Below are positions 9,421-64,000 of a stretch of 64,000 nucleotides of DNA, one piece after another. The notes beneath the pieces were generated by a model. The model did no database searches, had not been told where the DNA came from, and saw only the letters and a list, made by a program, of their open reading frames with translations. The DNA is taken from positions 10,352,182 to 10,416,181 of the forward strand of contig OY848920.1 in assembly GCA_963693285.1 (NCBI GenBank), written 5' to 3'. Origin of the DNA: Xestospongia muta (lineage: Eukaryota > Porifera > Demospongiae > Haplosclerida > Petrosiidae). The stretch's first letter is position 1. Each line of letters starts with the position of its first letter. The translations under genes and the position numbers were made by a program.

Positions 9421-12783
<3,363 letters not shown>

Positions 12784-13170: not shown

Positions 13171-16100
13171 ATGGCTTCAAGAAATCTTTCTTTTGAGAAA
13201 TTATTAGAAGAGAAACCAACTCTTGATGAATTACGTAAACATATTCGTATTGGTAGTAAATGGTATCAGTTAGGAATTCAGCTGAAACTGAACGCTAAGA
13301 AGTTGGAAGATATTCACAAACTACCAGATGACTCCACATACAAAACAACAAAAATGTTTGAGTTGTGGTTAGATACCAAACCTAATGCTACCAGAAGACA
13401 AGTAGTAGATGTTTTGAGGAAGGAATCAATGAGTGTTGCCCATGAGTATGAACAGATATTGTGGAAATCCTGTACTAGTAAGTACAAGAACCTTTTACAT
13501 GTACATCTAGTTATAAATGTTATATTACTAGTTTGTTTAGTGGATTGTGTACTGTTCTTATTATAGGAATGGATACCCCAGGTACAGGAACAAGTCCTAT
13601 TCTTCAACCGCATACACACATACTGCCTCAAACTCAACAACTAGGTAAGTTACATGACTTGATATAACAGTTGTTCCTTTTATTGTCTTACTTCATTTAG
13701 ATATTTCAGATCTTTTGAAGAAGGTTCCCACTGAACATGAACTACTCAATCTATTAGCTGATATTAGTAACTTGTGGCGTGAGATTGGGTTAAGTGTCAA
13801 AGTTCCTTACAATATTTTGGATCGTTTAAAACGTAGCCAAGAGAGTGATGCTATCAAACTATCTGAAGTCATTCATAGCTGGTTAACTACTACTGAGTCA
13901 CATCTTGTTACCTGGGAAACAGTGATTTCTACCATCAAGGGTCCTATTGTTAATAATATCAAGAAAGCTAATGAATTACGTCAATACTTAAATAAAGGTA
14001 AGTTGATATAATATTTATTAATACAGTCATTGGATATCTGTTTGTTCCTTAGTGAAGGAAGATGCTCTCCAAAGTTTTATTGGAGAAATGTCACAATCTC
14101 TGATCAATCCTGTAAAAGTGTCCCAGCTCTTATTTAGTGAGAGATGTATCAGTGAAGAAACACTTGATGTAATGGAGACAATGGAGGGTATTCTGAATGA
14201 GAAGAAGACAACTCTGTTATCTGCTATACATACAGCAGTATCTTCAGATCACAAGAAATTGAAAGTGGTAGCTACAGTACTGTCCAAATTTGAAGAGACT
14301 AAAATTCTATCTGAGAGAATTACCAATGAATACAGTGAGAGAACACTTTCATATTACCTGGTTTAATAGTGGTATTTTTTCTCTTAAAATTGAATGTCTA
14401 TAGCTCAGATATATGACCAGATGAAGACTGATATTACTCAAGAGATAGGAACAACAAGTCATAATGATACAATGGAGGTTACAGAATCTGGAAATTGTAT
14501 TACATGTACACCTGAGGTCAGTATTTATTATTGTATAATAATCTACTACTAGATGTTACTATGGTTTCATAGGAATCTAATGTGATGACAAAGTGGGATA
14601 TGTTGAATCCAAGTGGTAAGCGACCACTAGAAGATAAAGAGATATCAGATGAGGACTTAAAAAGGAAGAGGGAGAGACATGATTTAGAACCAACATCTGA
14701 TTATAATGGTACATGTATATTGTTGACTAACTAAACTGTATTTATAAATTTTATTTATTTTATTATAGTTCATGCCAGTGACATTTTACGTTGTCATTAT
14801 GGTACTCTCTCTCAATCTCTTCAATATCCAGTTCAAGTAGCAGAACTACTTCATGGAGAGGGAGTCATTTCAGATGATATACTAACTATATCTACTCAGC
14901 CATTAATGTCACTACTAAAAGCTGTACGTGGTGCTGTCCATAGCAACTATCATAACCTAAAAGTGTTTGCCAGTGTACTTCAAAGATTCACTGATAATAT
15001 ACAATTAGGTGATGTCATAATGAATGACTACAGTAAGTTATAAAGTTGATTACATAATGTAATTTTAAAATATTACTAAAATTATAGAGCAATCATTTGA
15101 AGACAGAACAACACACACTAAACCATTACTCAGTGAAGGTATAGTTTGTTAGTATTAATATTATTATCCTGTTATATCTCTTATTGTAGTATCTTCTCAT
15201 AGTCTATCTCATGTAAGCAATGAGTCTGTTCAAGGTAATATCCTGTATATTCATGTAATAATATTTACTATGTCATAGATGGGATTTTTGTTCCACGAAG
15301 TATGAGTCCTATGTTTAATTCAATGAGAGTAAAATTTGGAACAACTTTCAACAAAATTCGAAATTTTATTAAAGAGATGTCTGTAACTTGTGAAAACTTG
15401 AAAACATTTCTCCAAGATTGTTATCCTGACCTCACCCCTCAATTATCACGTACCAGCACTAACACACTTGATGGTGTACTAGAAATTGTCAAAGTTAAAT
15501 GTACATTGATTGATATTAACATTTTAAAAGCCATTGCTGACCAATTTAATGTTAAAGAAGCTGATGTTCCCATTAAAGCTTATGAAGATGCTATTGAGGA
15601 GTTTTGTCACAATGTAACAACTCGTCTAAGTCTCCAGGAATCTCTTGTGGTGTCCAACAGTTCTCCTCTCAAATGTGAGACTGCTAAGTTTGTTCTCGAA
15701 TGGGATCCTGACAAGACTTCGCTGACTGACATTAAAAACCTTTTGTCAGTTGCCTTTGAAAGATTAAATAAAAGAGTTAAAGTAATTATTGTGACTGAGG
15801 GTAACTCCATCATTGTGACCTGTACCTTTCCACTCAGTCTGACAACTTTACTTATTGCCAAAGCTCAGGAGACTCTTGAATCATTGAAGAGGAAAGGATT
15901 TCTACAACTTACAGTTGGTCACTGTACCATTTATGATCATAGAAGAGACAAGGTAAGAGATGAGTAGTATTAGACAACAGTTACTACATGTGTTGTTTAT
16001 TGATATATAGGAGGTTAGAACTATTGTAGAAGAGAACACAAAGGAGTTGAGAAGTCAACTGGAACTAGAACAAACCATGCGGAAAAAGATGACTATACAA

Positions 16101-17771
16101 ATGTCATCTATTGTCAGACAAAATGAAGGTATATTGTGTACAACTACTGTTTTATTTAATAGCTGTCTATTATATGATATATCTGATTAATAACTTAATG
16201 TTCCTTTATATAGAAACAAAAGAAATGAAAGAAAAAACAATTGAAAATTTGACGTCACTTGTGAAAACAAAGGAAGGTAAATTAATACAACAGCAATCAC
16301 AAGTCCAATATTGTCAGTATTTTACATAATATATTAGTGATCAATTTTCTTCTCATTTTATATAAAGCTTTTGAGAAGAATATACAGTCAGTGTCTGCTG
16401 AGAGACAGAAAGAGCTAGAGACACTACAAGAAATAATAACGTCATTGACTTTACAACTAAGGGAGAGTGACCAACAGATTAAGGAGTTAAAGCAGAGCTT
16501 GAAAGGTAACTGGTATTAGTCACTTCTCATTATATGACATTGTTACTAGATCTAGCATTCATACTGAAGACTCGTAAACCAGTAACAGTCTAGTCTAGTC
16601 ACTAGTGTCCTTAAAGGATATTATAATACTCTATGAGAAAGAGTCTAGTCAATAACAATTATATACAATATAGATTTGGTGAAACAAGGACTGATTTAAA
16701 AGGATATGAGCACATGATGACCACGCCTTTTTGAATAATTAATTGTTGTAAAGTTTTAAAATGTGCTTCACATTGGCACCAAGCCACTAATCAGCTCACC
16801 AATGAGAATATTGTAGGACATTATTGCAAATATCATAGTCAGAATGGAGAACAAATAACTTGTTGCCATAGTAATGGCTTCCTTTCTTCTTCAGTGTGTT
16901 GTCTGTGTATTGTAGTGTGTTATAGTATATGTTACTATGTGTGTACTATACTATATACTAACTCTGTTTTATAACAGGAGACACTGGAAGTGTTCAGTGG
17001 AGAGATGATGACAATATTGTTAGTCTCACTAGACCAAGTGTAGTACAAAGTGAAGATGTTATAAGTAAATTAATAAAAGAACAAAAAACAGGAAAAGAAT
17101 GGAGTATTCGTCTCTCCTCGTCATCTCCTGAAAGTACTGCAGTTATTATAAACAATCTTAATAAGTGTACAGTGTGGAAACTTTATATAGAGGACACTTC
17201 ATTGGACAGTAAGTGTGTATCGACATTATCAGAGATACTAAAAACTAATAAAACAATAAGGACACTACAGCTGTACTTCTCTTCACTTACTGGTGGTATC
17301 AAACAAGTCAGTGATAGTCTCTGTAATAATGAAACACTTGAAGAGTTAGTGTTGTGGGATGTTACTGGTATCACAGATGAAGATATGACTCATTTATCTA
17401 CTATGTTAGCAACTAATACAACTTTAAAAGAACTACGTCTCACCAAATGTAACATCACTGACAATGGAGTCCGATATATCTGTGAAGGACTTACTAAAAA
17501 CCAAACATTGACTTTGTTGAACATCGGAAGTAATCATCAGATCACTTCATTTAGTACCAGTACAATAGCAGATCTAATACAAACTACTACATCACTGACA
17601 AGACTAGATCTCGACAATGCTTCACTGAACAATGATGATATCAAGACAATATGCACATCACTAACTAAAAATATTACAATATGGAAACTATACTTATCAA
17701 GTCGACATTACGAGTATTGTAAGAAGTTAGACAGTTATCAAGTTATTAAAGACAGACTTGAGTTCTGGTAA
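13171..17771 (+). CDS. Gene A: Death-Death-CARD-like-CARD-like-X-coiled coil-LRR protein
   Basis: Probable cytosolic recognition/signalling protein without a NACHT domain. Fourteen exons sum to 3360 nt (1119 residues): 13171-13477, 13567-13644, 13701-13997, 14053-14334, 14404-14516, 14573-14708, 14769-15032, 15088-15138, 15190-15234, 15279-15952, 16011-16128, 16214-16276, 16368-16505 and 16978-17771. Exon 1 is a Death domain (GSKWYQLGIQL, MFELWLDT). Exon 3 is a second Death domain (WREIGLSVKVP, VIHSWLTT) seen only in this copy. Exons 4 and 7 are CARD/DED-like (VSQLLFSERCISEETLD; VAELLHGEGVISDDIL). Exons 5-6 give a basic linker with KRKRER. Exon 10 is unrecognised domain X. Exons 11-13 form a coiled coil. 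Exon 14 is RNI/NLR-type LRRs. The start was chosen because all paralogues begin MAxRNLSFE; an upstream in-frame ATG at 13075 has no counterpart. The exons found in other copies after the coiled coil are missing here through an intron deletion. Confidence 0.85.
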
Positions 17772-19277
17772 TAGTAAGTAGTTTGTTGTTTATTCTTAAT
17801 CTGTCTTCTCGCTCACTTTTATTTTATCTTTAAATTTCTCTTGACATTATCTTCTCTTCTTTTATTAACAATTTCTTTCCCTAACAAAACTAATAGACAA
17901 TAAAAATAGAGCAGTTTTGCTCAACACTTACTTCTCTAACGTCGCACTTTTTTGCTCTCTGACAGCTGGTCATTTGGCGCTTGTGAGTTAATTATTTATG
18001 GGTGTGGTCTCATTTTTAACCCCTTGGTGGAGATTTTGTTTGAGTTTCTGAAGAGTGTTTGAAAAAAACATACTTTAGCAATTTTCTTAACTGAAAGCAG
18101 AGAAGTCAACACGTCCTTTCTTATTTTCAGTGGAGGTAGAAGACTACACATTATTAATATAACTAGACTATTGAAGTCAGTTCAGTTGATCAAGTTATAT
18201 ATAGATATTTCTGATATAGAGAAGTTTGCTCACTAACACAATAAATGATGGGATGATGTTAATTGACCTCAACTTACTCTATATTCTATGAACAATGTAC
18301 ATATCACTATTGTAAAGGAGATTCTATTGAGGACAAGAGAGGAACAATTTGTATATAAACCTTTAACCTTAAACTGGATACAGTATATTAAATGTGGAAT
18401 ATTATGTGAAGTGAGTTAAAGTAATTGGAAGCAATTATTACCCTCTCTCTCCCTCCATATATCAGTCATTAAGGTAATGACATCATATATTATTATATTG
18501 AGGTAATAATGACATCATTAATATCACAATGTCTCTTAAGATAGAGTGTAGAAATTATCTCATTTTAATATTATCTGTTATATTTTAGAATGTTCTGTTT
18601 TATCTGATTTCTTAACATGTAATTTATCTTACCTATAAAGTAGTACCAGCTGTTACTATATATTTTAAATTTGAGGTAGACTAATAAAATATACTACTTG
18701 ATCATACAGGAAGGATTGATGTACAATTTTAACAGATTATCATGCATAATTTTAAAACATCTATAATTAATTTTATTACACACCTTGTCTCATTATAGAC
18801 TAAAGGTTCAGTTGTGTTATCTACCATCAGTTGTACTATAGCTTCTTTTGTACTTGGAAAGATAGCAGTGGAGTACCTCCTGGTCTTCTCTCACATGAAC
18901 ACATTAATGACAATAATTTAAAGTACCAACAAACTCATTGATCAGGTCTTGATACTCAATCACTTGATGACTCCAGTATTAGTTCAAAGTACTGGATATA
19001 ATCCTGTTATTAACACCTGATATTATCATACTGATAACAGTATTAACTATTGTGTGTGTATACAATTAAAACAATGTAGAAAATGTAAAGGAAAATAAAC
19101 AAAGATAATTAACAATGAATAATTAATTATTATTACATAATAAAAGTATTCACCTAACAATAGTAACAAATCATTAACAATAGAGTCGGGGACTTAACAA
19201 TAAACAAAAAGATAAACAATTGATAATTACTACAATGTAACAATGTATAGTAGACAATACACTATTATCATGTGATG
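17772..19277. repeat. Duplicated non-coding 3' flank of LRR gene (copy 1)
   Basis: About 1.5 kb of AT-rich non-coding DNA after the LRR stop codon. It is repeated almost unchanged after genes B (25974-27468) and C (38240-39720), and in part after D and E. It contains a likely poly(A) signal (aataaa at about 17900) and a conserved stretch (tgatcaagttatatatagat). I see no coding exon. Confidence 0.8.
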
Positions 19278-21883: not shown

Positions 21884-24800
21884 ATGGCTGCAAGAAATCT
21901 TTCTTTTGAGAAACTAATGGAAGAGAAACCAGCTCTTGATGAATTATGTGAACATATTCGTATTGGTAGTAAATGGTATCAGTTAGGAATCCAGTTAAAA
22001 TTAGATCCTAAGAAGTTGCGAGATGATATTCAAAAGTTACCAGAAGATTCTACTTACAAAACATCAAGAATGTTTGAGTTGTGGTTAGATACCAACCCTA
22101 ATGCTACCAGAAGACAAGTTATAGATACTTTAAGGAAGGAAGTCATTGAAGAAAACACTGTTGCTCATAAATATGAGCTGGTCTTGTTAAGAAAATGTTG
22201 TATCTCTGATGGTGGGTGAATCTGGTTGATAAGATAGTGTGTGTGTTGTTATTTTTATTATAGGAATGAATTCCTCAGCTACTAAAGCAATTGATATTCT
22301 TTGGTGCCATGCTGACACCTTACTGCAGTCTCTGTTTAATCCTGTAAAGGTGTCCTAGCTCCTATTTAGTGAGAGATGTATCAGTGAAGCAACACTTGAT
22401 AGTATGGAGGGACTAAAAGGTTCCTCAGATGAGAAGAAGACAACTCTGTTATCTGCTATACATACAGCAGTATCTTCAGATCACAAGAAGTTGAAAGTAG
22501 TAGCTACAGTACTGTCCAGGTTTGAGGAGATGAAAGTTCTATCTGAGAGAATTATCAGTGAATATAGTGAGATATCATTAATTTTTAATAATTTATTTTG
22601 ACATTTCATTATTAAAAGGTCAAAAATTTCCAGAAGACCAGACAACAATAGCTAATGTTCAAGAGGTAGTCATGACAGGTCATAGTAGTTGTGAAGATCA
22701 TGCCAGTGACATTTTACGTTGTCATTATGGTACTCTCTCTCAATCTCTTCAATATCCTATTAGAGTAGCAGAAATGCTCTGTGGAGAGAAAGTTATTTCA
22801 AAATTAACATTGTCTACAGTAAAAAGTATTGCAGAATCTCAATCTGAAGCAGAAGCATTGTTTGTCCTGTTAAGAGCTATACGTCATGCTATACATAGTA
22901 ACCATAGTAACCTGCTAATATTTGCTAGTGTGCTGTTAAAATTTACTAGCAATGTACCATGTGGTAAGGATATGTTGAAAGATTATGGTAAGTACATATG
23001 ATTTATAATCATAACACTAATATTGACATAGAGAAGGCATTTCCTAATAATGAAATATTGGATGAACACTCAATTAATACTGTAGTTAGTGAAGGTATAA
23101 TATGATATATTAAGATCATAATATCATTGAGTCAAATTAGATAATTCATCAACTACTACATCAGTAGCTTCAGTTGATAGCAGTTTAAGTCAAGGTAATA
23201 ATTTATATTGATAAATTGTCATTGAAAGATCACTTATTAGACCTAACATTATCTACAGTTTCAAATGAAAACAGTTCAGCTTCAAGTCAAGGTTAGTATT
23301 ACAAGAATATAGTAGAACTATTTATTGTTACTAATTGTAGATAATGTATTAAAGGAAGTTAGAATTCCTCGAAAGTTTGGGCCTATTTTTGGATCAATTA
23401 AAAGAGAATATGCAATAGCCTTCAGTAATATCCGAAAAGCTATCAACAAAACGCCTCCACCTCTGGATGAATTGAAACGATTTCTTAGAGATGGTTATTC
23501 TCACCTCAAATCTCAAATAGCTCATTCTAACTCCATTGATGATGTTCTAGATGTTGTTAATGATCATTGTACACTGATCAATATCGGTTGTTTGGAGGGT
23601 ATTGTGAAGCGCTTCGAACTCAAAGAAGCTGAGACACATATACAAACATACAAAGATGTTGTTAAATCATCTTGTAAAGAAACCAAAGCTTCTCTTTGTC
23701 TAAACAAAAGTTTTAAAGTTACAAACACTCCTGCTCTTCTCCAATGTGAGACAGCTGTCTTTGTTTTGAACTGGAATCCTAAAGATTGTACATTAGAAGA
23801 TATTGAGGATATCCTTTCAGAGTCATTTGAAAGAGATGTGGAGATTCGTTACTTAGCAAAAGGCAACTCCATCATTGTCACTTGTTTTTTTCCACTCAGT
23901 CTAACAATTGTACTTATTGCCAAAGCTCAGGAGACTCTTGAATCATTGAAGAGGAGAGGATTACTACAACTTACAATTGGTCACTGTACCATTTATGATC
24001 ATAGAAGAGACAAGGTAAGAGATGAGTAGTATTAGACAACAGTTACTACATGTGTTATTTATTGATATATAGGAGGTTAGAACTATTGTAGAAGAGAACA
24101 CAAAGGAGTTGAGAAGTCGACTAGAACTAGAACAAACCATGCGGAAAAAGGTGACTATACAAATGTCATCTATTGTCAGACAAAATGAAGGTATATTGTG
24201 TACAACTACTGTTTTATTTAATAGCTGTCTATTATATGATATATCTGATTAATAACTTAATGTTCCTTTATATAGAAACAAGAGAAATGAAAGAAAAAAC
24301 AATTGAAGATTTGACGTCACTTGTGAAAACAAAGGAAGGTAAATTAATACAACAGCAATCACAAGTCCAATGTTGTCAGTATTTTACATAATATATTAGT
24401 GATCAATTTTCTTCTCATTTTATTATAAAGTTTTTGAGAAGAATATACTGTCAGTGTCTGCTGAGAGACAGAAAGAGCTAGAGACACTACAAGAAATAAT
24501 AACGTCAATGACTTTACAACTAAGGGAGAGAGACCAACAGATTGAGGAGTTAAAGCAGAGCTTGAAAGGTAACTGGTATTAGTCACTTCTCATTATATGA
24601 CATTGTTACTAGATCTAGCATTCATACCAAAGACTCATAAACCAGTAACTGATCAAGGACTTGAGGAGACTCAAACACAGTCCAGTCAGGAAGAGACATC
24701 ACTTATCACTGAAACTACAGGTAGTACTATTCAATATATATAAATAGTCTTATATTACTCTTGTAGAATCTCTACCAATATCAGAGTTAAAAGATCAGTT

Positions 24801-25973
24801 AAAGGGTTCAGTTGATGATAAAGAAGACAGTTCATTACCTCATCCAAGTAGGTTATATTGTAATTTGTATTATTATAACAAAGTAAAAATAATGTTTATT
24901 GATGTAATATACTAATACAATCCTTTAGTCAATATGATAGCAATGATAGAATTATATTTATTGTTCTTCTATAGCAATATCAACACTCAGTAGTCTCTTC
25001 CTGTTAGCAAAATTTAATAATAAGCCCCGCCTCCTATTAGCTCGTTGCCATAGTAACCATATTTAGTAAACAGTAATGGCTTCCTTTCTTCTTCAGAGTG
25101 TTGTTTGTGTATTGTAGTGTGTTATAGTATATATTACTATGTGTGTACTATACTATATACTAACTCTGTTTTATAACAGGAGACACTGGAAGTGTTATGT
25201 GGAGAGATGATGTCAATAGTGTATGGCTCAATAGTCCAAGTGTAGTAGAAAGTGAAGATGTTATAAGTAAATTAATAAAAGAACAACAAACAGGAAAAGA
25301 ATGGAGTATTAATCTCTCCTCATCATCTCCTGAAAGTACTGCAGTTATTATAAACAATCTTAATAAGTGTACAGTGTCGAGTCTTGATATATTGAACACT
25401 TCATTGGACAGTAAGTGTGTATCGATATTATCAGAGATACTAAAAACTAATAAAACAATAAAGAAACTAGTGCTGGTGTCCTCTTCACTTACTGGTGGTA
25501 TCAAACAAGTCAGTGATAGTCTCTGTAATAATGAAACACTTGAACAGTTAGTGTTGGCTAATGTAACTGATATCACAGATGAAGATATGACTCACTTATC
25601 TACTATATTAGCAACTAATACAACTTTAGAAAATCTACTTCTCTTCAACTGTAACATCACTAATAATGGAGTCCGATATATCTGTGAAGGACTTACTAAA
25701 AACCAAACATTGACTAAGTTGGACATCGGACGTAATCATCAGATCACTTCAGTTAGTACCAGTACAATAGCAGATCTAATACAAACTACTACATCACTGA
25801 CAAGACTAGATCTCGACAATACTTCACTGAACAATGATGATATCAAGACAATATGCACATCACTAACTAAAAATACTACAATAACGGAACTATACTTATC
25901 AAGAGAACATAAAGAGTATTGTACGAAGTTAGACAGTTATCAAGTTATTAAAGACAGACTTATGTTCGTGTAA
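21884..25973 (+). pseudogene. Gene B: Death/CARD-like/X/coiled coil/LRR paralogue with premature stop
   Basis: Same exon order as gene D. Main exons are Death 21884-22211, CARD-like-1 22264-22566, linker plus CARD-like-2 22619-22987, X 23341-24014, a coiled coil at about 24072-24570 and LRR 25180-25973. In exon 2 the codon CAG of the other copies is TAG (22356-22358), in frame by codon counting from the ATG. The product should end after about 140 residues, essentially a lone Death domain with half of the next fold. Frames downstream look open through the LRRs, so the stop is recent, bypassed by exon skipping, or functional. Exon 2 has phase-1 ends and 303 nt, so skipping it would keep the frame. 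The promoter side is the RABL3/FKBP remnant. Confidence 0.75.
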
Positions 25974-30072: not shown

Positions 30073-33000
30073 ATGGCTGCAAGAAATCTTTCTTTTGAGA
30101 AACTAATGGAAGAGAAACCAGCTCTTGATGAATTATGTGAACATATTCGTATTGGTAGTAAATGGTATCAGTTAGGAATTCAGCTAAAACTGGATCCTAA
30201 GAAGTTGGAAGATATTCACAAGCTACCAGATGACTCCACATATAAAACAACAAAAATGTTTGAGTTGTGGTTAGATACCAAACCTAATGCTACCAGAAGA
30301 CAAGTGGTAGATGCTTTGAAGAAGAAGGTCATTGAAGAAAACACTATTGCTCATGAATATGAGCTGGTCATATTAAGAAAATGTTGTATCTCTGATGGTG
30401 AGTGAATCTGGTTGATAAGATAGTGTGTGTCATTATTTTTATTACAGGAATGGACTCCTCAGCTACTGAAGCAATTGTTATTCTTTGGCACCATACTGAT
30501 ACACTATCACAGTGTCTGATCAATCCTGTAAAAGTGTCCCAGCTCTTATTTAGTGAGAGATGTATCAGTGAAGAAACACTTGATGTAATGGAGACAATGG
30601 AGGGTATTCTGAATGAGAAGAAGACAACTTTATTATCTGCTATACATACAGCAGTATCTTCAGATCACAAGAAGTTGAAAGTGGTAGCTACAGTACTGTC
30701 CAAGTTTGAGGAGACAAAAGTTCTATCTGAGAAAATTATTAATGAATATAGTGAGAGAACAATTTCGTATTACCTGGTTTAATAATGGTGTTTTCTCTTG
30801 AATGTCTATAGCTCAAATATATGACCAGATGAAGACTGACATTGCTCAAGAGATAGGAACAACAAGTCATAATGATCCAATGGAGGTTACAGAATCTGGA
30901 AATTGGATTCCATCAGAGGGCACTATTTATAAGGTTATTGCGTGTACAATTACTAATACTAGATGTTACTATGGTATCACAGGAATCTAGTTTGACAACA
31001 AAGTGGGATATGTTAAATCCAAGTGGAAAGCGACCACTAGAAGATAAAGATATATCAGATGAGGACTTAAATAGGAAGAGAGAGAGACGTGATTCAGAAC
31101 CAACATCTGATTATAGTGGTACATTTATAAGTGAACTGTATTTATAAATTTTATTTATTTTATTATAGTCCGTGCCAGTGACATTTTACGTTGTCATTAT
31201 GGTACTCTCTCTCAATCTCTTCAATATCCTATTAGAGTAGCAGAAATGCTCTATGGAGAGAGGGTTATTTCAAAAGTAACATTGTCTACAGTAAAAAGTA
31301 CTGCAGAATCTCAATCTGAAACAGAAGCATTGTTTGTCCTGTTAAGAGCTATACGTCATGCTGTACATAGTAACCATAGTAACCTGCTTATATTTGCTAG
31401 TGTACTGTTAAAATTTACTAGCAATGTACCATGTGCTAAGGACATGTTGAAGGATTATGGTAAGTACATATGATTTATAATCATAACACTAATATTGACA
31501 TAGAGAAGGCATTTCCTAATAATGAAATATTGGATGTACACTCAATTAATACTGTAGTTAGTGAAGGTATAATATGATACATTAAGATCATAATATCATT
31601 GAGTTGAATTAGATAATTCATCAACTACTACATCAGTAGCTTCAGTTGATAGCAGTTTAAGTCAAGGTAATAATTTATATTGATAAATTGTCATTGAAAG
31701 ATCACTTATTAGACCTAACATTATCTACAGTTTCAAATGAAAACAGTTCAGCTTCAAGTCAAGGTTAGTATTACAAGAATATAGGAGAACTATTATTGTT
31801 ACTAATTACAGATAATGTATTAAAGGAAGTTAGAATTCCTCGAAAGTTTGGGCCTATTTTTGGATCAATTAAAAGAGAATATGCAATAGCCTTCAGTAAT
31901 ATCCGAAAAGCTATCAACAAAACGCCTCCACCTCTGGATAAATTGAAACGATTTCTTAGAGATGGTTATTCTCACCTCAAATCTCAAATAGCTCATTCAA
32001 ACTCCATTGATGATGTTCTAGATGTTGTTAATGATCATTGTACACTGATCAATATCAGTTGTTTGGAGGGTATTGTGAAGCACTTTGAACTCAAAGAAGC
32101 TGAGACACATATACAAACATACAAAGATGTTGTTAAATCATTTTGTAAAGAAACAAAAGCTTCTCTTTGTCTAAACCAAAGTTTTAAAGTTACAAACACT
32201 CCTGCTCTTCTCCAATGTGAGACAGCTGTCTTTGTCTTGAACTGGAATCCTAAAGATTGTACATTAGAAGATATTGAGGATATCCTTTCAGAGTCATTTG
32301 AAAGAGATGTGGAGATTCGTTACTTAGCAAAAGGCAACTCCATCATTGTCACTTGTTTTTTTCCACTCGGTCTAACAATTGTACTTATTGCCAAAGCTCA
32401 GGAGACTCTTGAATCATTGAAGAGGAGAGGATTACTACAACTTACAATTGGTCACTGTACCATTTATGATCATAGAAGAGACAAGGTAAGAGATGAGTAG
32501 TATTAGACAACAGTTATTACATGTGTTGTTTACAAAGGAGTTGAGAAGTCGACTTGAACTAGAACAAACCATGCGGAAAAAGATGACTATGCAAATGTCA
32601 TCTATTGTCAGACAAAATGAAGGTATATTGTGTACAACTACTGTTTTATTTAATAGCTGTCTATTATATGATATATCTGATTAATAACTTAATGTTCCTT
32701 TATATAGAAACAAGAGAAATGAAAGAAAAGACAATTGAACATTTAACATCACTTGTAAAAACAAAGGAAGGTAAATTAATACAACAGGAATCACAAGTCC
32801 AATGTTGTCAGTATTTTACATAATATATTAGTGATCAATTTTCTTCTCATTTTATATAAAGCTTTTGAGAAGAATATACTGTCAGTGTCAGCTGAGAGAC
32901 AGAAAGAGCTAGAGACACTACAAGAAATAATAACGTCAATGACTTTACAACTAAGGGAGAGAGACCAACAGATTGAGGAGTTAAAGCAGAGCTTGAAAGG

Positions 33001-36000: not shown

Positions 36001-38239
36001 TTTATTAGACCCTTCCTCTTTTGTGAGATTAGAAATATTTATTATAGGAACTACAAACACTCCACAGACCCATAGATAAGCTAGTATATGAATGGTTTGA
36101 TTAAACCCAAAAATAATTATTTATAAAAACACAACATACCAACTATATCAACTATTGAACATGACATGACAGAAATAGAAACAAATACTTTAAGAGAACA
36201 AGTACTGATTTAAAAGGATATGAACAAATGATAATGATGCCTTTATAAATAATTAATTAGATTGTAAAGTTTTAAAGCTTCACATTGATACCAACAACAG
36301 AACATTTTACTACATGTCTGCTCCAACAATATCAGGAGTCAATAAAAGGAAGGGACTATGTTGAATATAATAATAGAACAAACACTATATATTATAATAT
36401 CAATAATACATAATTATACACTGACATTACATGTATACTAATCAGCTCACCAATCAGAATACTTGTAGGACATTATGTTGCAAATGTCATTGTCAAAATG
36501 GAGAACAAAGTGTTAATATCTACACTCAATGTTATAGTTCATTTTTAAATATTTTCAGAAGTAATCAATTTTGACATGTACTAGAATTAGTAAAGCAACT
36601 GCTGATCAAGAGAAAGCTGTTTTTGAGTTTTTAGAAGATAGAGATATCTTCATTATGTTTTTATCATTTGATGCAAAGACTTTATTTTCTAATATTCTTT
36701 GAAACAGAATACAGCTCCTTAGTACACGACTTGTAATATGACTAGCTATCTTTTCATTCATTGTAATAACACATTTCACTGATGACATCACATAGTCTAA
36801 TCTAAGGAATTGGACTAAAGTCATCAGATGCCCTTTCTTGTATTAAGTGAGTGGGTGTCTGGGGACAATAATATTTACTTTACAAGGAAATACTATTATA
36901 GTCTAAACAAACCACACCCAAAAATTTAGTTACAAATATTTCATAATTCCAAACTAGTTGTCCTTCAATACACACTAAAACTTAATTCATAGTCTTTTTA
37001 AATAACTGATGATTATGATAAAACATTTTTTTTCATTTATTGATTATCAAAGCAATCTACTTGTCTTTCTTCTATCAGTACCTTAACTAATAAAGTACAT
37101 CAGATCACTTCATTGTTTATAGTCAGACTCAATATATCTAGTCAACCAGTAAACTCTACAGTTCACAAGTCTCAAGTTGACATATGATATCCAGTGATGT
37201 GTTCTGTTAATATGATAGCAATGATAGAATTATATCTATTGTTACTCTGTAGCATGTCAACACTTAATCTAGTTGGCAAAATGTAATAATAAGCCTGGCC
37301 TCCTATTAGTTCGTTGCCATAGTAACCACATTCAGTAAACAGTAATGGTTTCCTTTCTTCTTCAGTGTGTTGTCTGTGTATTGTAGCACATTATAGTATA
37401 TATTACTATGTGTGTACTATACTATATACTAACTCTGTTTTATAACAGGAGACACTGGAAGTGTTCAGTGGAAAGATGACAATAGTGTTAGTCTCACTAG
37501 ACCAAGTGTAGTAGAAAGTGAAGATGTTATAAGTAAATTAATAAAACAACAACAAACAGGAAAAGAATGGAGTATTGATCTCAACTCATCATCTCCTGAA
37601 AGTACTGCAGTTATTATAAACAATCTTAATAAGTGTACAGTGAGGAGTCTTTATATAGTGAACACTTCATTGGACAGTAACTGTGTATCGATATTATCAG
37701 AGATACTAAAAACTAATAAAACAATAAAGAAACTACACCTGCACTCCTCTTCACTTACTGGTGGTATCAAACAAGTCAGTGATAGTCTATTTAATAATAA
37801 AACACTTGAGAAGTTACTGTTATTAGAAAGTCCTGGTATCACAGATGAAGATATGACTCACTTATCTACTATGTTATCAACTAATACAACTTTAAAAGTA
37901 CTAGAACTCTCCTACTGTAAAATCACCGATAATGGAGTCCGATATATCTGTGAAGGACTTACTAAAAACCAAACATTGACTATGTTGAACATCGGAGGTA
38001 ATCATCAGATCACTTCAGTTAGTACCAGTACAATAGCAGATCTAATACAAACTACTACATCACTGACAAGACTATACCTCTTCCATACTTCACTGAACAA
38101 TGATGATATCAAGACAATATGCACATCACTAACTAAAAATACTACAATAAGGAAACTATACTTATCAAGAGAACATAAAGTGTATTGTATGAAGTTAGAC
38201 AGTTATCAAGTTATTAAAGACAGACTTGAGTTCGTGTAA
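30073..38239 (+). CDS. Gene C: Death/CARD-like/X/LRR paralogue with duplicated coiled coil
   Basis: Twenty-one exons can be joined in frame to 3795 nt (1264 residues). They are Death 30073-30397, CARD-like-1 30448-30750, linker 30812-30933 and 30983-31118, CARD-like-2 31169-31459, mini-exons 31504-31566, 31613-31666 and 31731-31763, and X 31812-32485. The first coiled coil is 32538-32622, 32708-32770, 32862-32999 and 33044-33151. A 35-nt LRR-exon stub (34543-34577) follows. The second coiled coil is 34639-34756, 34842-34904, 34996-35133, 35178-35285 and 35332-35412. The acidic exon is 35622-35687 and the LRR exon 37449-38239. The usual acceptor of the first coiled-coil exon is deleted, so an internal acceptor at 32538 is assumed. 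The stub must use the gtatgg donor at 34578. The frame is therefore possible but depends on two unproven splice sites. Confidence 0.65.
33180..34450. repeat. Long intron block shared by genes C, E and F (C copy 1)
   Basis: AT-rich intronic DNA, about 1.3 kb, recurring at 35850-37400 (C), 51800-52800 (E) and 61970-63450 (F). Landmarks are atatacatggtttattagac, the palindrome tgatgacatca and gtgagtgggtgtctg. It is absent from B and D and largely deleted in A. No coding exon or clear terminal inverted repeats are visible. Confidence 0.75.
35850..37400. repeat. Long intron block shared by genes C, E and F (C copy 2)
   Basis: Second copy inside gene C, between the acidic exon (35622-35687) and the LRR exon. 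It is longer than copy 1 because it retains a segment around 36280-36600 that copy 1 lacks. Confidence 0.75.
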
Positions 38240-45300: not shown

Positions 45301-46400
45301 AACAAAGTAAAAAGAATGTTTATTGATGTAATATACTAATACAATCCTTTAGTTAATATGATAGCAATGATAGAATTATATTTATTGTTCTTCTGTAGCA
45401 ATATCAACACTCAGTAGACTCTTCCTGTTAGCAAAATTTAATAATAAGCCCCGCCTCCTATTAGCTCGTTGCCATAGTAACCATATTCAGTAAACAGTAA
45501 TGGCTTCCTTTCTTCTTCAGTGTGTTGTCTATGTATTGTAGTGTGTTATAGTATATATTACTATGTGTGTACTATACTATATACTAACTCTGTTTTATAA
45601 CAGGAGATACTGGAAGTGTTCGGTGGAGAGATGATGACAATAGTGTTAGACTCACTAGACCAAGTGTAGTAGAAAGTGAAGATGTTATAAGTAAATTAAT
45701 GAAAGAACAACAAACAGGAAAAGAATGGAGTATTGATCTCAACTCATCATCTCCTGAAAGTACTGCAGTTATTATAAACAATCTTAATAAGTGTACAGTG
45801 TGGAGACTTGATATATGGGACACTTCATTGGACAGTAAGTGTGTATCGATATTATCAGAGATACTAAAAACTAATAAAACAATAAAGAGACTAGTGCTGT
45901 GGTCCTCTTCACTTACTGGTGGTATCAAACAAGTCAGTGATAATCTCTTTAATAATGAAACACTTGAACAGTTAGTGTTGTATAATGTTACTGATATCAC
46001 AGATGAAGATATGACTCACTTATCTACTATGTTAGCAACTAATACAACTTTAAAAGAACTACATCTCATCAACTGTAACATCACTGATAATGGAGTCCGA
46101 TATATTTGTGAAGGACTTACTAAAAACCAAACATTGACTACGTTGAACATCAGTCATAATCGTCAGATCACTTCAGTTAGTACCAGTACAATAGCAGATC
46201 TAATACAAACTACTACATCACTGACAACACTATTTCTCTACACTACTTCACTGAACAATGATAATATCAAGACAATATGCACATCACTAACTAAAAATTA
46301 TACAATAAGGGAACTACGGTTATCAAGAGAACATGAAGAGTATTGTACGAAGTTAGACAGTTATCAAGTTATTAAAGACAGACTTGTGTTCGTGTATTAG
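42314..46400 (+). CDS. Gene D: Death-CARD-like-CARD-like-X-coiled coil-LRR protein
   Basis: Thirteen exons sum to 3126 nt (1041 residues): 42314-42638, 42689-42991, 43044-43412, 43457-43519, 43566-43619, 43684-43716, 43766-44439, 44498-44615, 44701-44763, 44855-44992, 45037-45144, 45191-45271 and 45604-46400. Order: Death domain, CARD-like-1, a linker of the SQKFPKDQTT type fused to CARD-like-2 (VAEMLCGEKVISKVTL), Ser/Thr mini-exons, X (674 nt), coiled coil, a Gln/Glu-rich spacer and LRRs. It lacks the acidic exon and the long intron of C, E and F. Every internal exon start from exon 2 through the X exon is phase 1. Its LRR exon is 3 nt longer than those of A, B and E, ending in an extra Tyr codon before TAG. 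No disabling change was seen, so it is the cleanest compact copy. Confidence 0.85.
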
Positions 46401-51300: not shown

Positions 51301-53730
51301 TACCAATATCAGAGTTAAAAGATCAGTTAAAGGGTTCAGTTAATGATAAAGAAGACAGTTCATTACCTCATCCAAGTAGGTTATATTGTAATTTGTATTA
51401 TTATAACAAAGTAAAAAGAATGTTTATTGATGTAATATACTAATACAATCCATTACATTCTTCAATGTTAGTATCATTACAGTAATTTGTTTGTCTACTA
51501 GTAATGGTTGCACTGAAATCACAAATATTAAAATAATGAATAATCTGGTTTATTCTGATGTAAATGTCTTTATTGATCAATAGAGTCTCCAGATGACATA
51601 TTGAAAGATTCTGATGATGAAGAGTCAGAGGATGATGAGTCAATCAAAGGTATGTATCTTTGAATATATGTCATTGTTAGCTGTGATAATGTGAACAAGA
51701 TCACAATTATTATAAAATGTCATCCTATAATTGTGATGTTAACAGTACACTTCACACTTAAGACAATAATCTCTAAAGATGCTCATGGAAAATGGTTGCT
51801 TTCTTGTATGCAGTCATGTAGTTAAAAAGTTATGATCTAGTCACTAGTCTCCTTAGAGGATATTATAATACTCTCTAAGGAAGAGTCTGGTCAATAACAA
51901 TTATATACAATATAGGTTTGATGAAGACAAAGGACATAGATATATACATGGTTTATTAGACCCTTCCTCTTTTGTGAGTTAGGAATATTTATTAAAGGAA
52001 CTACAAACACTCCACAGACATAGGAAAGGGTGTATGAATGGTTTGATTAAACCCAAAAAATAATTATTTATAAAAATACAACATACCAACTATATCAACT
52101 ATTGAACATGACATGACAGAAATAGAAACAAATACTTTAAGAGAACAAGTACTGATTTAAAAGGATATGAGCAAATGATAATGATACCTTTATAAATAAT
52201 TATTATTACAACTTGTAATATGACCAGCTATCTTTTCATTCATTGTAATAACACATTTCACTGATGACATCATAGTCTAATCTAAGGAATTGGACTAAAG
52301 TCATCAAATGCCCTTTCTTGTATTAAGTGAGTGGGTGTCTGGGGACAATACAATTTACTTTACAAGGAAATAGTCTAAACAAACCACAGCCAAAAATTTA
52401 GTTACAAATATTTCATAACTTCAAACTAGTTGTTCTTCAAAACAAACTAAAACTTAATTCATAGTCTTTTTAAATAACTGATGATTATAATAGACAAGGT
52501 ATTATTTTTCCTTTATTAATTGTCAAAGCAATCTACTTGTCTTTCTTCTATCAGTACCTTAACTAATAAACTACATCAGATCACTTCATTGTTTATAGTC
52601 AGACTCAATATATCTAGTCAACCAGTGAACTCTACAGATCACAAGTCGCCAGTTGATATATTAATACCTGATATCTAGTGATGTGTTCTGTTAATATGAT
52701 AGCGATGATAGAATTATATCTATTGTTCCTTTGTAGCCATATCAATGCTCAATATTCAATTACCAAAAATGTAATAATAATTCAACCTCATTATTAACTT
52801 GTTGCCATAGTAACCATATTCAGTAAACAGTAATGGCTTCCTTTCTTCTTCAGTGTGTTGTCTGTGTATTGTAGTGTGTTATAGTATATATTACTATGTG
52901 TGTACTATACTATATACTAACTCTGTTTTATAATAGGAGACACTGGAAGAGTTCAGTGGAAAGATGATGAAAATAGAGTTATACTCACTAGTCCAAGTGT
53001 AGTAGAAAGTGAAGATGTTATAAGTAAATTAATAAAAGAACAACAAACAGGAAACGAATGGTGTATTGATCTCAAGTTATCATCTCCTGAAAGTACTGCA
53101 GTTATTATAAACAATCTTAATAAGTGTACAGTGTGGAGTCTTCATATATTGAACACTTCATTGGACAGTAAGTGTGTATCGATATTATCAGAGATACTAA
53201 AAACTAATAAAACAATAAAGACACTAGGGCTGCAGTCCTCTTCACTTACTGGTGGTATGAAACAAGTCAGTGATAGTCTCTTTAATAATGAAAAACTTGA
53301 AGTGTTATTGTTGTATTATGTTACTGGTATCACAGATGAAGATATGACTCACTTATCTACTATGTTAGCAACTAATACAACTTTAAAAGAACTATATCTC
53401 CTCAACTGTAACATCACTGATAATGGAGTCCGATATATCTGTGAAGGACTTACTAAAAACCAAACATTGACTACATTGGACATCGGAGGTAATCGTCAGA
53501 TCACTTCAGTTAGTACCAGTACAATAGCAGATCTAATACAAACTACTACATCACTGACAGAAGTACATCTCGACAATACTTCACTGAACAATGATGATAT
53601 CAAGACAATATGTACATCACTAACTAAAAATACTACAATAAGGGAAATATACTTATCAAGAGAACATTACGAGTATTGTATGAAGTTAGACAGTTATCAA
53701 GTTATTAAAGACAAACTTAATTTCTGGTAA
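48303..53730 (+). CDS. Gene E: Death-CARD-like-CARD-like-X-coiled coil-LRR protein
   Basis: Fourteen exons sum to 3288 nt (1095 residues): 48303-48627, 48680-48982, 49044-49165, 49215-49350, 49411-49701, 49750-49818, 49870-50543, 50602-50719, 50805-50867, 50959-51096, 51141-51248, 51295-51375, 51584-51649 and 52937-53730. Order: Death domain (MAIRNLSFEE), CARD-like-1, linker with KRKRER, CARD-like-2 of the A/F type (VAELLHGEGVISDDIL), X of a second type (ATFGFIRKEFGIAF), coiled coil, spacer, acidic exon (SDDEESEDDES) and LRRs. No disabling mutation seen. The last intron is about 1.3 kb and carries the shared long block. Confidence 0.85.
51800..52800. repeat. Long intron block shared by genes C, E and F (E copy)
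   Basis: Shorter version of the shared intronic block, with an internal deletion near 52200 relative to gene F. No coding exon seen. Confidence 0.7.
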
Positions 53731-57036: not shown

Positions 57037-57090
57037 GATGAGTGATAGTAGAAGGTAGTAATAATGTTGAGGTTATAGTGATGATGTTGT

Positions 57091-61400: not shown

Positions 61401-64000
61401 TATATATAAATAGTCTTATAATACTCTTGTAGAATCTCTACCAATATCAGAGTTAAAAGATCAGTTAAAGGGTTCAGTTGATGATAAAGAAGATAGTTCA
61501 TTACCTCATCCAAGTAGGTTATATTGTAATTTGTATTATTATAACAAAGTAAAAAGAACATTTATTGATGTAATATACTAATACAATCCATTACATTCTT
61601 CAATGTTAGTATCATTACAGTAATTTATTTGTCTACTAGTAATCGTTGTACTGAAATCACAAATATTAAAATTATGAATAATCTTGGTTTATTCTAATAT
61701 AAATGTATTTAATGATCAATAGAGTCTCCAGATGACATATTGAAAGATTCTGATGATGAAGAGTCAGAGAATGAAGAGTCAGAGGATGATGAGTCAATCA
61801 AAGGTATGTATCTTTGAATATATGTCATTGTTAGCTGTGATAATGTGAACAAGATCACAATTATAAAAATGTCATCCTATAATTGTGATGTTAACAGTAC
61901 ACTTCACACTTAAGACAATAATCTCCAGTGTTTTCACAAGATGCTTATGGAAAATTGTTGCTTTCTTGTATGCAGTCATGTAGTTAATAAGTTATGATCT
62001 ACTCACTAGTCTCCTTAGAGGATATTATAATACTCTCTAAGGAAGCGTCTGGTCAATAACAATTATATACAATATAGGTTTGGTGAAGACAAAGGACATA
62101 GATATATACATGGTTTATTAGACCCTTCCTCTTTTGTGAGTTAGGAATATTTATCACAGGAACTACAAACACTCCACAGACCCATAGATAAGCTAGTGTA
62201 TGAATGGTTTGATTAAACCTAAAAATAATTATTTATAAAAACACAACATACCAACTATATCAACTATTGAACATGACATGACAGAAATAGAAACAAATAC
62301 TTTAAGAGAACAAGTACTGATTTAAAAGGATATGAACAAATGATAATGATGCCTTTATAAATAATTAATTAGATTGTAAAGTTTTAAAATGTGCTTCACA
62401 TTGATACCAACAACAAAACATTTTACTACATGTTTGTTCCAATAATATCAGGAATCAATAAAAGGAAGGGACTATATGTTGAATGTAATAATAAGAACAA
62501 ACACTATACATTATAATATCAATAATACATAATTTTACACTGACATTACCTGTATACTAATCAGCTCACCAATCAGAATACGTGTAGGACATTATGTTGC
62601 AAATGTCATTGTCAAAATAGAGAACAAATAGTGTTAATATCTACACTCAATGTTATAGTTCATTTTTAAATATATTCAGAACTAATTAATTTTGACATGT
62701 AGAATTAGTAAAGCAACTGCTGATCAAGAGAAAGCTGTTTTTGAGTTTTTAGAAGATAGAGATATCTTCATTATTTTTTTTTTCATTTGATGCAAAGACT
62801 TTATTTTCTAATATTTTTTGAAACAGAATACAGCTCCTTAGTACACAACTTGTAATATGACCAGCTATCTTTTCATTCATTGTAATAACACATTTCACTG
62901 ATGACATCACATAGTCTAATCTAAGGAATTAGACTAAAGTCATCAGATGCCCTTTCTTGTATTAAGTGAGTGGGTGTCTGGGGACAATACAATTTACTTT
63001 ACAAGGAAATAATCTAAACAAACCACACCCAAAAATTTAGTTACCAATATTTCATAATTCCAAACTAGTTGTCCTTCAATACAAACTAAAACTTAATTCA
63101 TTGTCTTTTTAAATAACTGATGATTATAATAGATAAATTTTTTTTTTCATTTATTGATTGTCAAAGCAATCTACTTGTCTTTCTTCTATCAGTACCTTAA
63201 CTAATAAACTACATCAGATCACTTCATTGTTTATAGTCAGACTCAATATATCTAGTCAATCAGTAAACTCTACAGTTCACAAGTCTCAAGTTGATATATT
63301 AATACCTGATATCCAGTGATATGTTCTGTTAATATGATAGCAATGATAGAATTATATCTATTGTTCCTTTGTAGCCATATCAACATTCAATCTAGTTGGC
63401 AAAATGTAATAAGCCCCGCCTCCTATTAGCTCGTTGCCATAGTAACCATATTCAGTAAACAATAATGGCTTACTTTCTTCTTCAGTGTGTTGTCTATGTA
63501 TTGTAGTGTGTTATAGTATATATTACTATGTGTGTACTATACTATATACTAACTCTGTTTTATAACAGGATACACTGGAAGTGTTCTGTGGGAAGATGAT
63601 TACAATAGTGTTAGACTCACTAGACCAAGTGTAGCACAAAGTGAAGATGTTATAAGTAAATTAATAAAAGAAAAACAAACAGGAAAAGAATGGAGTATTC
63701 ATCTCTCCTCATCATCTCCTGAAAGTACTGCAGTTATTATAAACAATCTTAATAAGTGTACAGTGAGGAGTCTTTATATATGGCACACTTCATTGGACAG
63801 TAAGTGTGTATCGATATTATCAGAGATACTAAAAACTAATAAAACAATAAAGACACTATGGCTGGTGTCCTCTTCACTTACTGGTGGTATCAAACAAGTC
63901 AGTGATAGTCTCTGTAATAATGAAACACTTGAAGAGTTAGTGTTGTTAGATGTTACTGGTATCACAGATGAAGATATGACTCACTTATCTACTATATTAG
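58432..64000 (+). pseudogene. Gene F: Death/CARD-like/X/coiled coil/LRR paralogue with stop in X (3' end off window)
   Basis: Exons: Death 58432-58762, CARD-like-1 58816-59118, linker 59180-59301 and 59358-59493, CARD-like-2 59554-59844, mini-exon 59894-59962, X from 60014, a coiled coil at about 60747-61242, an acidic exon near 61724-61803 and LRR from 63569 to beyond 64000. Within X, a Ser codon of gene E (TCA) is TGA at 60199-60201, in frame by codon count, so the product should stop after about 480 residues with both CARD-like domains but no coiled coil or LRRs. The downstream frame is otherwise open. Death exon 1 has a two-codon extension. The acidic exon has a 15-bp internal duplication relative to gene E. 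Confidence 0.75.
61970..63450. repeat. Long intron block shared by genes C, E and F (F copy)
   Basis: The fullest copy of the shared intronic block, between the acidic exon and the LRR exon of gene F. No coding exon seen. Confidence 0.7.

What the first reader, a model, noticed from the sequence alone, without database searches (positions are those of the whole stretch)
16978..17771. LRR exons vary almost only at the solvent-exposed beta-strand positions
Across A, B, C, D, E and F the LRR exons are near-identical between repeats but differ in short codon clusters at the LxxLxLxx strand. First repeat: KLYIED, SLDILN, SLYIVN, RLDIWD, SLHILN, SLYIWH. Second: TLQLYF, KLVLVS, KLHLHS, RLVLWS, TLGLQS, TLWLVS. 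Later repeats (around 17338, 17431, 17513, 17602 and 17683 in A) behave alike, while the flanking sequence (SLDSKCVS, LTGGIKQVSD, DNGVRYICEGLTKNQTLT) is almost fixed. In LRR proteins these x positions form the concave ligand surface. The pattern resembles diversified recognition receptors and may involve positive selection, short-tract gene conversion or a targeted mechanism.
Basis: partly seen in the sequence, partly recalled or inferred. Interest (0 to 1): 0.9.

Follow-up and report, generated by a model that had tools for sequence, protein, structure and literature searches.

The report
Shuffled LRR receptors, variable binding face
A large animal gene family, probably from a sponge and probably used to recognise foreign molecules, keeps the frame of its binding domain nearly identical between copies while the residues on the presumed binding face differ from copy to copy, like a natural library of receptors.

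Summary
Confirmed and widened. The six LRR exons belong to a family with at least 143 scored copies in this 158-Mb genome, 127 on one contig, one with an internal stop. In 79 aligned copies, the 32 LxxLxLxx positions, chosen by motif, include 26 of the 32 most variable of 232 columns; pN is 0.353 against 0.042 in framework, and dN(strand)/dS(framework) is about 7. AlphaFold2 places 21 of the 32 in strands of an RNase-inhibitor/NLR-like LRR. Exon, about 135 bp of upstream intron and 215 bp downstream form a low-divergence island among genes with unlike surroundings, and 24 of 28 synonymous framework SNP pairs fail the four-gamete test. Best reading: ectopic gene conversion homogenises and shuffles the exon while diversifying selection keeps binding-face codons variable. 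Targeted mutagenesis is not required: synonymous diversity near those codons rises only 1.4-2.1-fold. Fifty-one further proteins repeat the pattern with correlated residue frequencies (r = 0.95). No NACHT was found in the exons tested. Immune recognition is inferred; the sponge identity is recalled, not tested.

The parts
16978..17771 (+). LRR exon of gene A (last coding exon, with stop); 8 full LxxLxLxx strands plus N- and C-terminal strands
   Evidence: AF2 model; LRR_6 in Pfam
16840..17987 (+). approximate extent of the low-divergence (gene conversion) island around exon A, set by the median homology ends over 300 locus pairs
25180..25973 (+). LRR exon of gene B
37449..38239 (+). LRR exon of gene C
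45604..46400 (+). LRR exon of gene D
52937..53730 (+). LRR exon of gene E
63569..64000 (+). LRR exon of gene F, cut by the window end; continues to G000:C4:10416537 and is open there
   Evidence: locus L012
13171..13476 (+). Death-domain exon of gene A (approximate exon ends)
   Evidence: Pfam Death 30.1 bits over a cut-off of 22.6; frame
15278..15955 (+). large upstream exon of gene A (helical half plus alpha/beta half; no confident Pfam match). Equivalents: B 23343-24020, C 31811-32491, D 43768-44445, E 49869-50549, F 60202-60693 (partial)
   Evidence: A is 45-52% identical to the other five; AF2 pLDDT 69.9
16367..16507 (+). coiled-coil-like exon of gene A (by sequence appearance; approximate ends)
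   Evidence: only weak Pfam matches below cut-off

Best explanation
These are the last exons of a large, clustered family of Death-domain plus LRR receptor-like genes without a detected NACHT domain. Three processes together explain the pattern. (1) Tandem and dispersed duplication keeps making copies. (2) Frequent ectopic gene conversion, centred on a unit of about 1.1 kb (end of the last intron, LRR exon, start of the 3' region), homogenises the framework and reassorts variants between genes whose other parts are old and different. (3) Diversifying selection favours amino-acid change at the strand x positions, which in the model lie on the parallel strands whose exposed side is the usual ligand face of such LRRs. 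The result behaves like a germline library: each gene carries its own, nearly independently assorted set of residues from a fixed alphabet at each position. Shown: the position-specific diversity, the conversion island, the loss of linkage, the modest synonymous rise. Inferred: that the strand face binds ligands, that the proteins signal through the Death domain, and that the ligands are microbial or non-self.
For: pN at strand positions 0.353 against 0.042 in framework; dN(strand)/dS(framework) 6.9; framework dN/dS 0.63. Variation lies mostly at codon bases 1 and 2 (heterozygosity 0.43 and 0.36) against 0.16 at base 3. Framework divergence stays about 2-3% whether the downstream 1.5 kb differs by 2-3% (6 pairs, mean 0.029) or 15% and more (214 of 231 pairs, mean 0.026). 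Upstream exons of A and B-F are only 45-52% identical. Diversity rises away from the exon, from 0.03-0.04 to 0.41 within 140 bp upstream (79 copies) and to 0.3-0.4 beyond about 220 bp downstream (22 copies). Framework LD is higher within 30 bp than beyond (p = 0.0002), and 24 of 28 synonymous SNP pairs show all four gametes. Strand codons show association mainly between adjacent codons (mean z 2.96, n 8) and almost none at 4 codons or more (mean z 0.24, n 632). Recent duplicates L051/L059, 1 difference in 1,005 flank bases, already have 3 nonsynonymous strand changes. The same pattern appears in 51 further database proteins.
Against: No ligand, expression or allele data. Clear recent conversion donors are rare: runs of 9 or more shared strand codons occur in 12 of 2,775 pairs against 2.6 expected (40 shuffles), so most exchange is inferred from lost linkage, not seen as fresh tracts. 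Pairs with about 1% framework difference already differ at about 60% of strand codons, which needs fast conversion from a pool larger than the copies I sampled. Nonsynonymous third-base transversions are under-used when rare codons are left out (0.17 against 0.33-0.37), a hint of positional bias. The selection test is a tree-free pairwise count; conversion invalidates ordinary site models, and pairs are not independent. The recent duplicate L069/L070 has 5 framework differences and no nonsynonymous strand change. Short flanks of two recent pairs are unexpectedly divergent (10 of 142 and 5 of 88 bases), which I did not explain.
Confidence: 0.74

Rival explanations
1. A targeted mechanism (template-driven or enzyme-driven codon rewriting, or conversion of single strands of 10-20 bp between flanking identical framework) rewrites strand codons faster than the rest of the exon.
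For: Third bases at strand codons are nearly fixed per position while bases 1 and 2 are mixed. Strand codons 6 bp apart are almost unlinked. Strand difference is about 0.62-0.71 of codons at every framework distance from 1% up. Rare-codon-filtered third-base nonsynonymous changes are about half as frequent as those at bases 1 and 2. Synonymous diversity is 1.4-2.1-fold higher next to strand codons.
Against: Synonymous change inside strand codons is close to framework level (5.7% against 4.4%). Third-base nonsynonymous transversions are nearly as common as others when all codons count (0.31 against 0.36-0.37). The five nonsynonymous strand changes in four recent duplicate pairs are all single-base. 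Framework SNPs have lost linkage too, so recombination is exon-wide. Many A-rich framework stretches are invariant, unlike adenine-directed retroelement mutagenesis (recalled rule).
Confidence: 0.15
2. Pure point mutation with extreme positive selection and no conversion: the copies are simply young and strand codons evolve very fast.
For: Strand nonsynonymous excess, also in very recent duplicates (L051/L059: 3 strand changes, 1 of 1,005 flank bases).
Against: The exon is alike across genes whose flanks and upstream exons are far more divergent. Synonymous SNP pairs fail the four-gamete test in 24 of 28 cases, and LD decays with distance. L069/L070 shows no nonsynonymous strand change while 5 framework bases changed.
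Confidence: 0.07
3. Relaxed constraint at exposed positions, without selection for diversity.
For: Exposed strand positions in LRR proteins tolerate many residues (general knowledge).
Against: Relaxation alone gives dN/dS near 1; strand dN is about 7 times framework dS and 3.2 times the path-inflated dS of the same codons.
Confidence: 0.04

Closest known systems
Zebrafish NLR-B30.2 family (PMC4852459; abstract and passages seen)
   Same: Hundreds of intracellular receptor genes, most on one chromosome arm; recognition exon (B30.2) exchanged by gene conversion across groups whose other domains stay distinct; high dN/dS in that exon.
   Different: Zebrafish genes have NACHT, and the B30.2 domain rather than the LRR is the selected module; here no NACHT was found and the LRR is selected.
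Podospora anserina hnwd non-self recognition genes (PMC2873952; abstract and passages seen)
   Same: Near-identical repeats under concerted evolution, with strong diversifying selection on a few interaction-surface codons (4 per WD40 repeat); residues such as W, Y, S, D, H and Q at the variable sites.
   Different: There, whole repeats exchange within and between genes and repeat number changes; here each repeat keeps its own third bases and exchange is position for position between genes.
NLR LRR domains, ribonuclease-inhibitor class
   Same: Fold: best PDB matches are NLRP3, NOD2, NLRP14 and ribonuclease inhibitor.
   Different: Rest of the protein: Death domain and unassigned exons, no NACHT found.
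Lamprey and hagfish variable lymphocyte receptors (recalled; my one paper search returned 0)
   Same: Diversity concentrated on the inner LRR strands.
   Different: VLRs are assembled somatically from cassettes; these exons are complete open frames in the genome. Somatic change here was not tested.
Sponge NLRs (Dysidea avara, PMC12909245, abstract and passages seen; A. queenslandica NLRs, PMC4850255, passages)
   Same: Large families of Death/CARD plus LRR proteins in sponges.
   Different: Those studies define NLRs by NACHT; the passages seen report no strand-specific diversity or gene conversion (the term gene conversion occurs 0 times in PMC12909245).

Membership tests
NLR (NACHT-LRR receptor) | NACHT domain between effector domain and LRR | tested here: not met
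   No NACHT by Pfam in the gene A exons tested singly or in the B, C and E exons tested; none of the 98 listed genome NACHT matches lies in the window interval (102 of 155 candidates scored, and several short exons were not tested).
NLR (NACHT-LRR receptor) | C-terminal ribonuclease-inhibitor-type LRR | tested here: met
   AF2 pLDDT 90.4; PDB matches to NLRP3, NOD2 and ribonuclease inhibitor.
NLR (NACHT-LRR receptor) | N-terminal death-fold effector domain | tested here: met
   Pfam Death in gene A, 30.1 bits. Exons were not joined by transcript evidence; other genes' Death exons were not tested.
Family under concerted evolution with diversified interaction codons (hnwd or NLR-B30.2 mode) | Interlocus gene conversion of the recognition exon | tested here: met
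   Island, flank decoupling, four-gamete failures, LD decay.
Family under concerted evolution with diversified interaction codons (hnwd or NLR-B30.2 mode) | Excess nonsynonymous diversity at predicted interaction positions | tested here: met
Family under concerted evolution with diversified interaction codons (hnwd or NLR-B30.2 mode) | Role in immune or non-self recognition | not testable with these tools
   No functional data.
Variable lymphocyte receptor | Somatic assembly from incomplete germline gene plus cassettes | not testable with these tools
   Germline exons are complete open frames (142 of 143 matches without internal stop); somatic DNA or reads are not available.
Diversity-generating retroelement target | Adenine-specific variation copied from a template repeat by a dedicated reverse transcriptase | not tested
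   No template or reverse transcriptase search was made. Invariant A-rich framework beside variable codons speaks against it.

The most novel reading that the evidence does not exclude
The LRR exon family is a germline combinatorial library that is re-dealt at the scale of single strands: ligand-face codons are exchanged or rewritten nearly independently, codon by codon, across all copies and across haplotypes of the population, by micro-conversion between framework anchors or a codon-directed mutator, so that each haplotype carries a different repertoire drawn from one fixed alphabet per position.
Probability: 0.18. Interest if true: 0.95.

Novelty: new variant of a known kind. Interest (0 to 1): 0.72.

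Why it matters
If the genome is a sponge, as I think, an early-branching animal without adaptive immunity holds a family whose binding face is diversified position by position while the rest of the domain is kept uniform. It would be a natural case of library design: fixed scaffold, variable face, independent assortment. Copy number, intact frames and one main cluster make it possible to test how germline receptor repertoires are generated, and whether haplotypes carry different repertoires, as would be needed for individual-specific recognition.

Tried and rejected
Targeted hypermutation was tested by synonymous change in and beside strand codons and by third-base nonsynonymous use: weak signals only, so kept as a rival. 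A test for clustered identity along strand codons in 10 chosen pairs gave no significant clustering (p 0.08 to 0.96). A search for shared strand-codon runs found a small excess only. The fold of the large upstream exon could not be settled: AF2 pLDDT 69.9 and one PDB match below E 0.001, of poor TM-score. Literature searches for this family or for strand-specific diversity in sponges gave nothing matching (open-licence papers only). Ordinary site models on a tree were not run, because conversion makes a single tree invalid. I considered adenine-directed retroelement mutagenesis and AID-like deamination from memory only and did not search for their genes.

Rows dropped: of 88 tblastn hits 2 partial ones were set aside (one is F cut by the window end; F is present whole from L012) and 1 exact duplicate was removed, leaving 85 exons; 6 more were dropped because my fixed-length extraction read a stop or a broken frame. 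Only one of these, L084, has a stop, so the other five are probably artefacts of my cutting. Four near-identical partners were dropped, leaving 75. Of 143 scored copies I fetched about 85, the closest to gene A, so distant subfamilies are under-sampled. Of 522 database proteins the tool listed 120; one search used 51.

Full report
What was checked. The quoted peptides are correct. A six-frame search of the genome that holds the window (G000, 158 Mb, 28 contigs; the window is contig C4, 10352182-10416181) scored 143 copies of the exon out of 551 first-look candidates; by my count of the listing 127 lie on C4, and one has an internal stop. The number is a lower bound because only the best candidates are scored.

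Data. I fetched about 85 of the copies closest to gene A and aligned 79 by codon after dropping 6 with extraction problems. In most tests four near-identical partners were also left out, giving 75. Copies more distant than about 76% from A are hardly represented.

Position-specific diversity. I fixed the x positions from the motif LxxLxLxx: the residue before the first anchor, the one between the anchors and the two after, for 8 strands, 32 columns. Pairwise Nei-Gojobori values are pN 0.353 and pS 0.134 at strand columns (pS inflated by multi-step paths), and pN 0.042 and pS 0.066 in 200 framework columns; dN(strand)/dS(framework) is 6.9 and framework dN/dS 0.63. Of the 32 most variable of 232 columns, 26 are strand columns. 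Strand columns hold on average 8.8 codons and 7.2 amino acids, the flanking anchor codons 3.3 and 1.8. Summed entropy over the 32 columns is about 62 bits, so apart from recent duplicates every copy has its own combination.

Codon anatomy. At most strand columns the third base is nearly constant (all T, all C or all G) while bases 1 and 2 vary. This could suggest targeted mutation, so I tested it. Codons for the same residue differ in 5.7% of pairs at the variable columns and 4.4% in framework. One-step third-base nonsynonymous transversions are realised at 0.31 of opportunities against 0.37 and 0.36 at bases 1 and 2 when all codons count, but at 0.17 against 0.37 and 0.33 when codons seen once are left out. 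Synonymous diversity is higher in the anchor codons between strand codons (0.085 against 0.041, p = 0.0004; against other Leu/Ile codons 0.052, p = 0.02) and within two codons of a strand position (0.054 against 0.037, p = 0.0008). A modest rise over about 10 bp is what linked variation around selected sites would give where linkage is very short; a mild local mutation effect is not excluded.

Structure. AlphaFold2 on gene A with the five window sisters gives pLDDT 90.4 and pTM 0.88. Best PDB matches are NLRP3, ribonuclease inhibitor, NLRP14 and NOD2. Of the 32 strand columns 21 fall in predicted strands: all 8 before and all 8 between the anchors, 5 of 8 just after, 0 of 8 at the last position. 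That these side chains face the concave side follows from the known geometry of this LRR class; I had no coordinates to measure it.

Gene conversion. Homology between loci runs from a median of 122 bp before the open frame (about 138 bp before the exon) to 216 bp after the stop in 300 pairs of 25 loci. Diversity climbs from 0.03-0.04 beside the exon to 0.41 at about 140 bp upstream, and from mostly 0.01-0.10 to 0.3-0.4 beyond about 220 bp downstream. Framework divergence does not follow flank divergence: 0.029 for 6 pairs with flanks 2-3% apart, 0.026 for 214 of 231 pairs with flanks 15% or more apart; the larger flank values come from forced alignment. The large upstream exon of A is 45-52% identical to those of B-F, and outside the island A and B match only in blocks. 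Framework SNPs are linked within 30 bp more than beyond (p = 0.0002), and 24 of 28 synonymous pairs (280 of 351 of all pairs) show four gametes. Genes A and B, 2% apart in the downstream flank, differ at 72% of strand codons.

Tempo. Strand-codon difference is about 0.62-0.71 at every framework distance from 1% upward; only four recent pairs share their strand codons. L051/L059 differ at 1 of 1,005 flank bases and have 3 nonsynonymous strand changes; L069/L070 differ at 4 of 1,009 and have none, with 5 framework changes. All five nonsynonymous strand changes in the recent pairs are single-base. So mutation with selection alone is moderate, and the full scrambling seen in pairs like A/B is best explained by exchange with other copies. 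Direct donors are rarely seen: runs of 9 or more shared strand codons occur in 12 pairs against 2.6 expected, the longest spanning 87-174 bp, several with 0-1 mismatches. The donor pool must be larger than my sample, for instance other haplotypes.

A second repertoire. The protein database lists 522 relatives, 120 shown. Some equal the fetched exons; 51 are 78-93% identical to the nearest one. Two, P0005 and P0007, were searched against the whole of G000 and have no match above 85%; the other 49 were compared only with the fetched exons. These 51 show entropy 1.86 at strand and 0.36 at framework columns, and their residue frequencies at strand columns correlate 0.95 with those of G000. They are probably from another haplotype, individual or near relative; the records are not named.

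Gene context. Gene A has a Death domain exon at 13171-13476, several helical exons without Pfam matches, the large exon 15278-15955 (AF2 pLDDT 69.9, fold unsettled), coiled-coil-like exons and the LRR exon. No NACHT was found in the exons tested or listed in this interval genome-wide. The gene model rests on open frames and splice-like ends, not transcripts. The genome looks to me like a demosponge such as Amphimedon queenslandica; this is recalled from genome style and protein type and was not tested.

Comparison. The mode matches two described systems: zebrafish NLR-B30.2 genes, where conversion and positive selection act on the recognition exon across groups (PMC4852459, abstract and passages), and Podospora hnwd genes, with concerted evolution plus selection at interaction-surface codons (PMC2873952, abstract and passages). 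It differs in scaffold, in the lack of a detected NACHT, and in near independence of neighbouring strand codons. My searches found no description of this family, but the library lacks most subscription papers, including the main study of A. queenslandica NLRs (recalled).

Verdict. Diversifying selection with exon-wide gene conversion is the best explanation; recognition is the likely function. A new variant of a known kind.

Noticed in passing
window 60031-60699: The large upstream exon of gene F carries one in-frame TGA in the genome search row, so gene F may be damaged upstream of its open LRR exon.
   Followed up: no
window 55855-57072 (-): A 405-aa open frame on the minus strand between genes E and F with a signal-like start; no Pfam match at E 0.001. 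To my eye it resembles fibrinogen-related or intelectin-like proteins (recalled).
   Followed up: partly
G000:C4:9513163-9532374 and 9553979-9563631: Two LRR-exon pairs (L049/L056 and L040/L044) lie about 40.8 kb apart in the same order, suggesting a recent segmental duplication or two haplotypes in the assembly.
   Followed up: partly
alignment column 164 (Met/Ile) of the LRR exon: This framework codon differs in 3 of the 4 recent duplicate pairs and is Met in 42 and Ile in 34 of 79 copies; why a non-strand site turns over so fast is unexplained.
   Followed up: no
G000:C4 2.9-5.2 Mb and 0.6-0.8 Mb: A second, 61-67% identical subfamily of LRR exons lies elsewhere on the same contig; I did not test whether it has its own conversion island.
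   Followed up: no
window 11400-11650: A long TCTCTC microsatellite makes an artificial Ser-Leu open frame.
   Followed up: no
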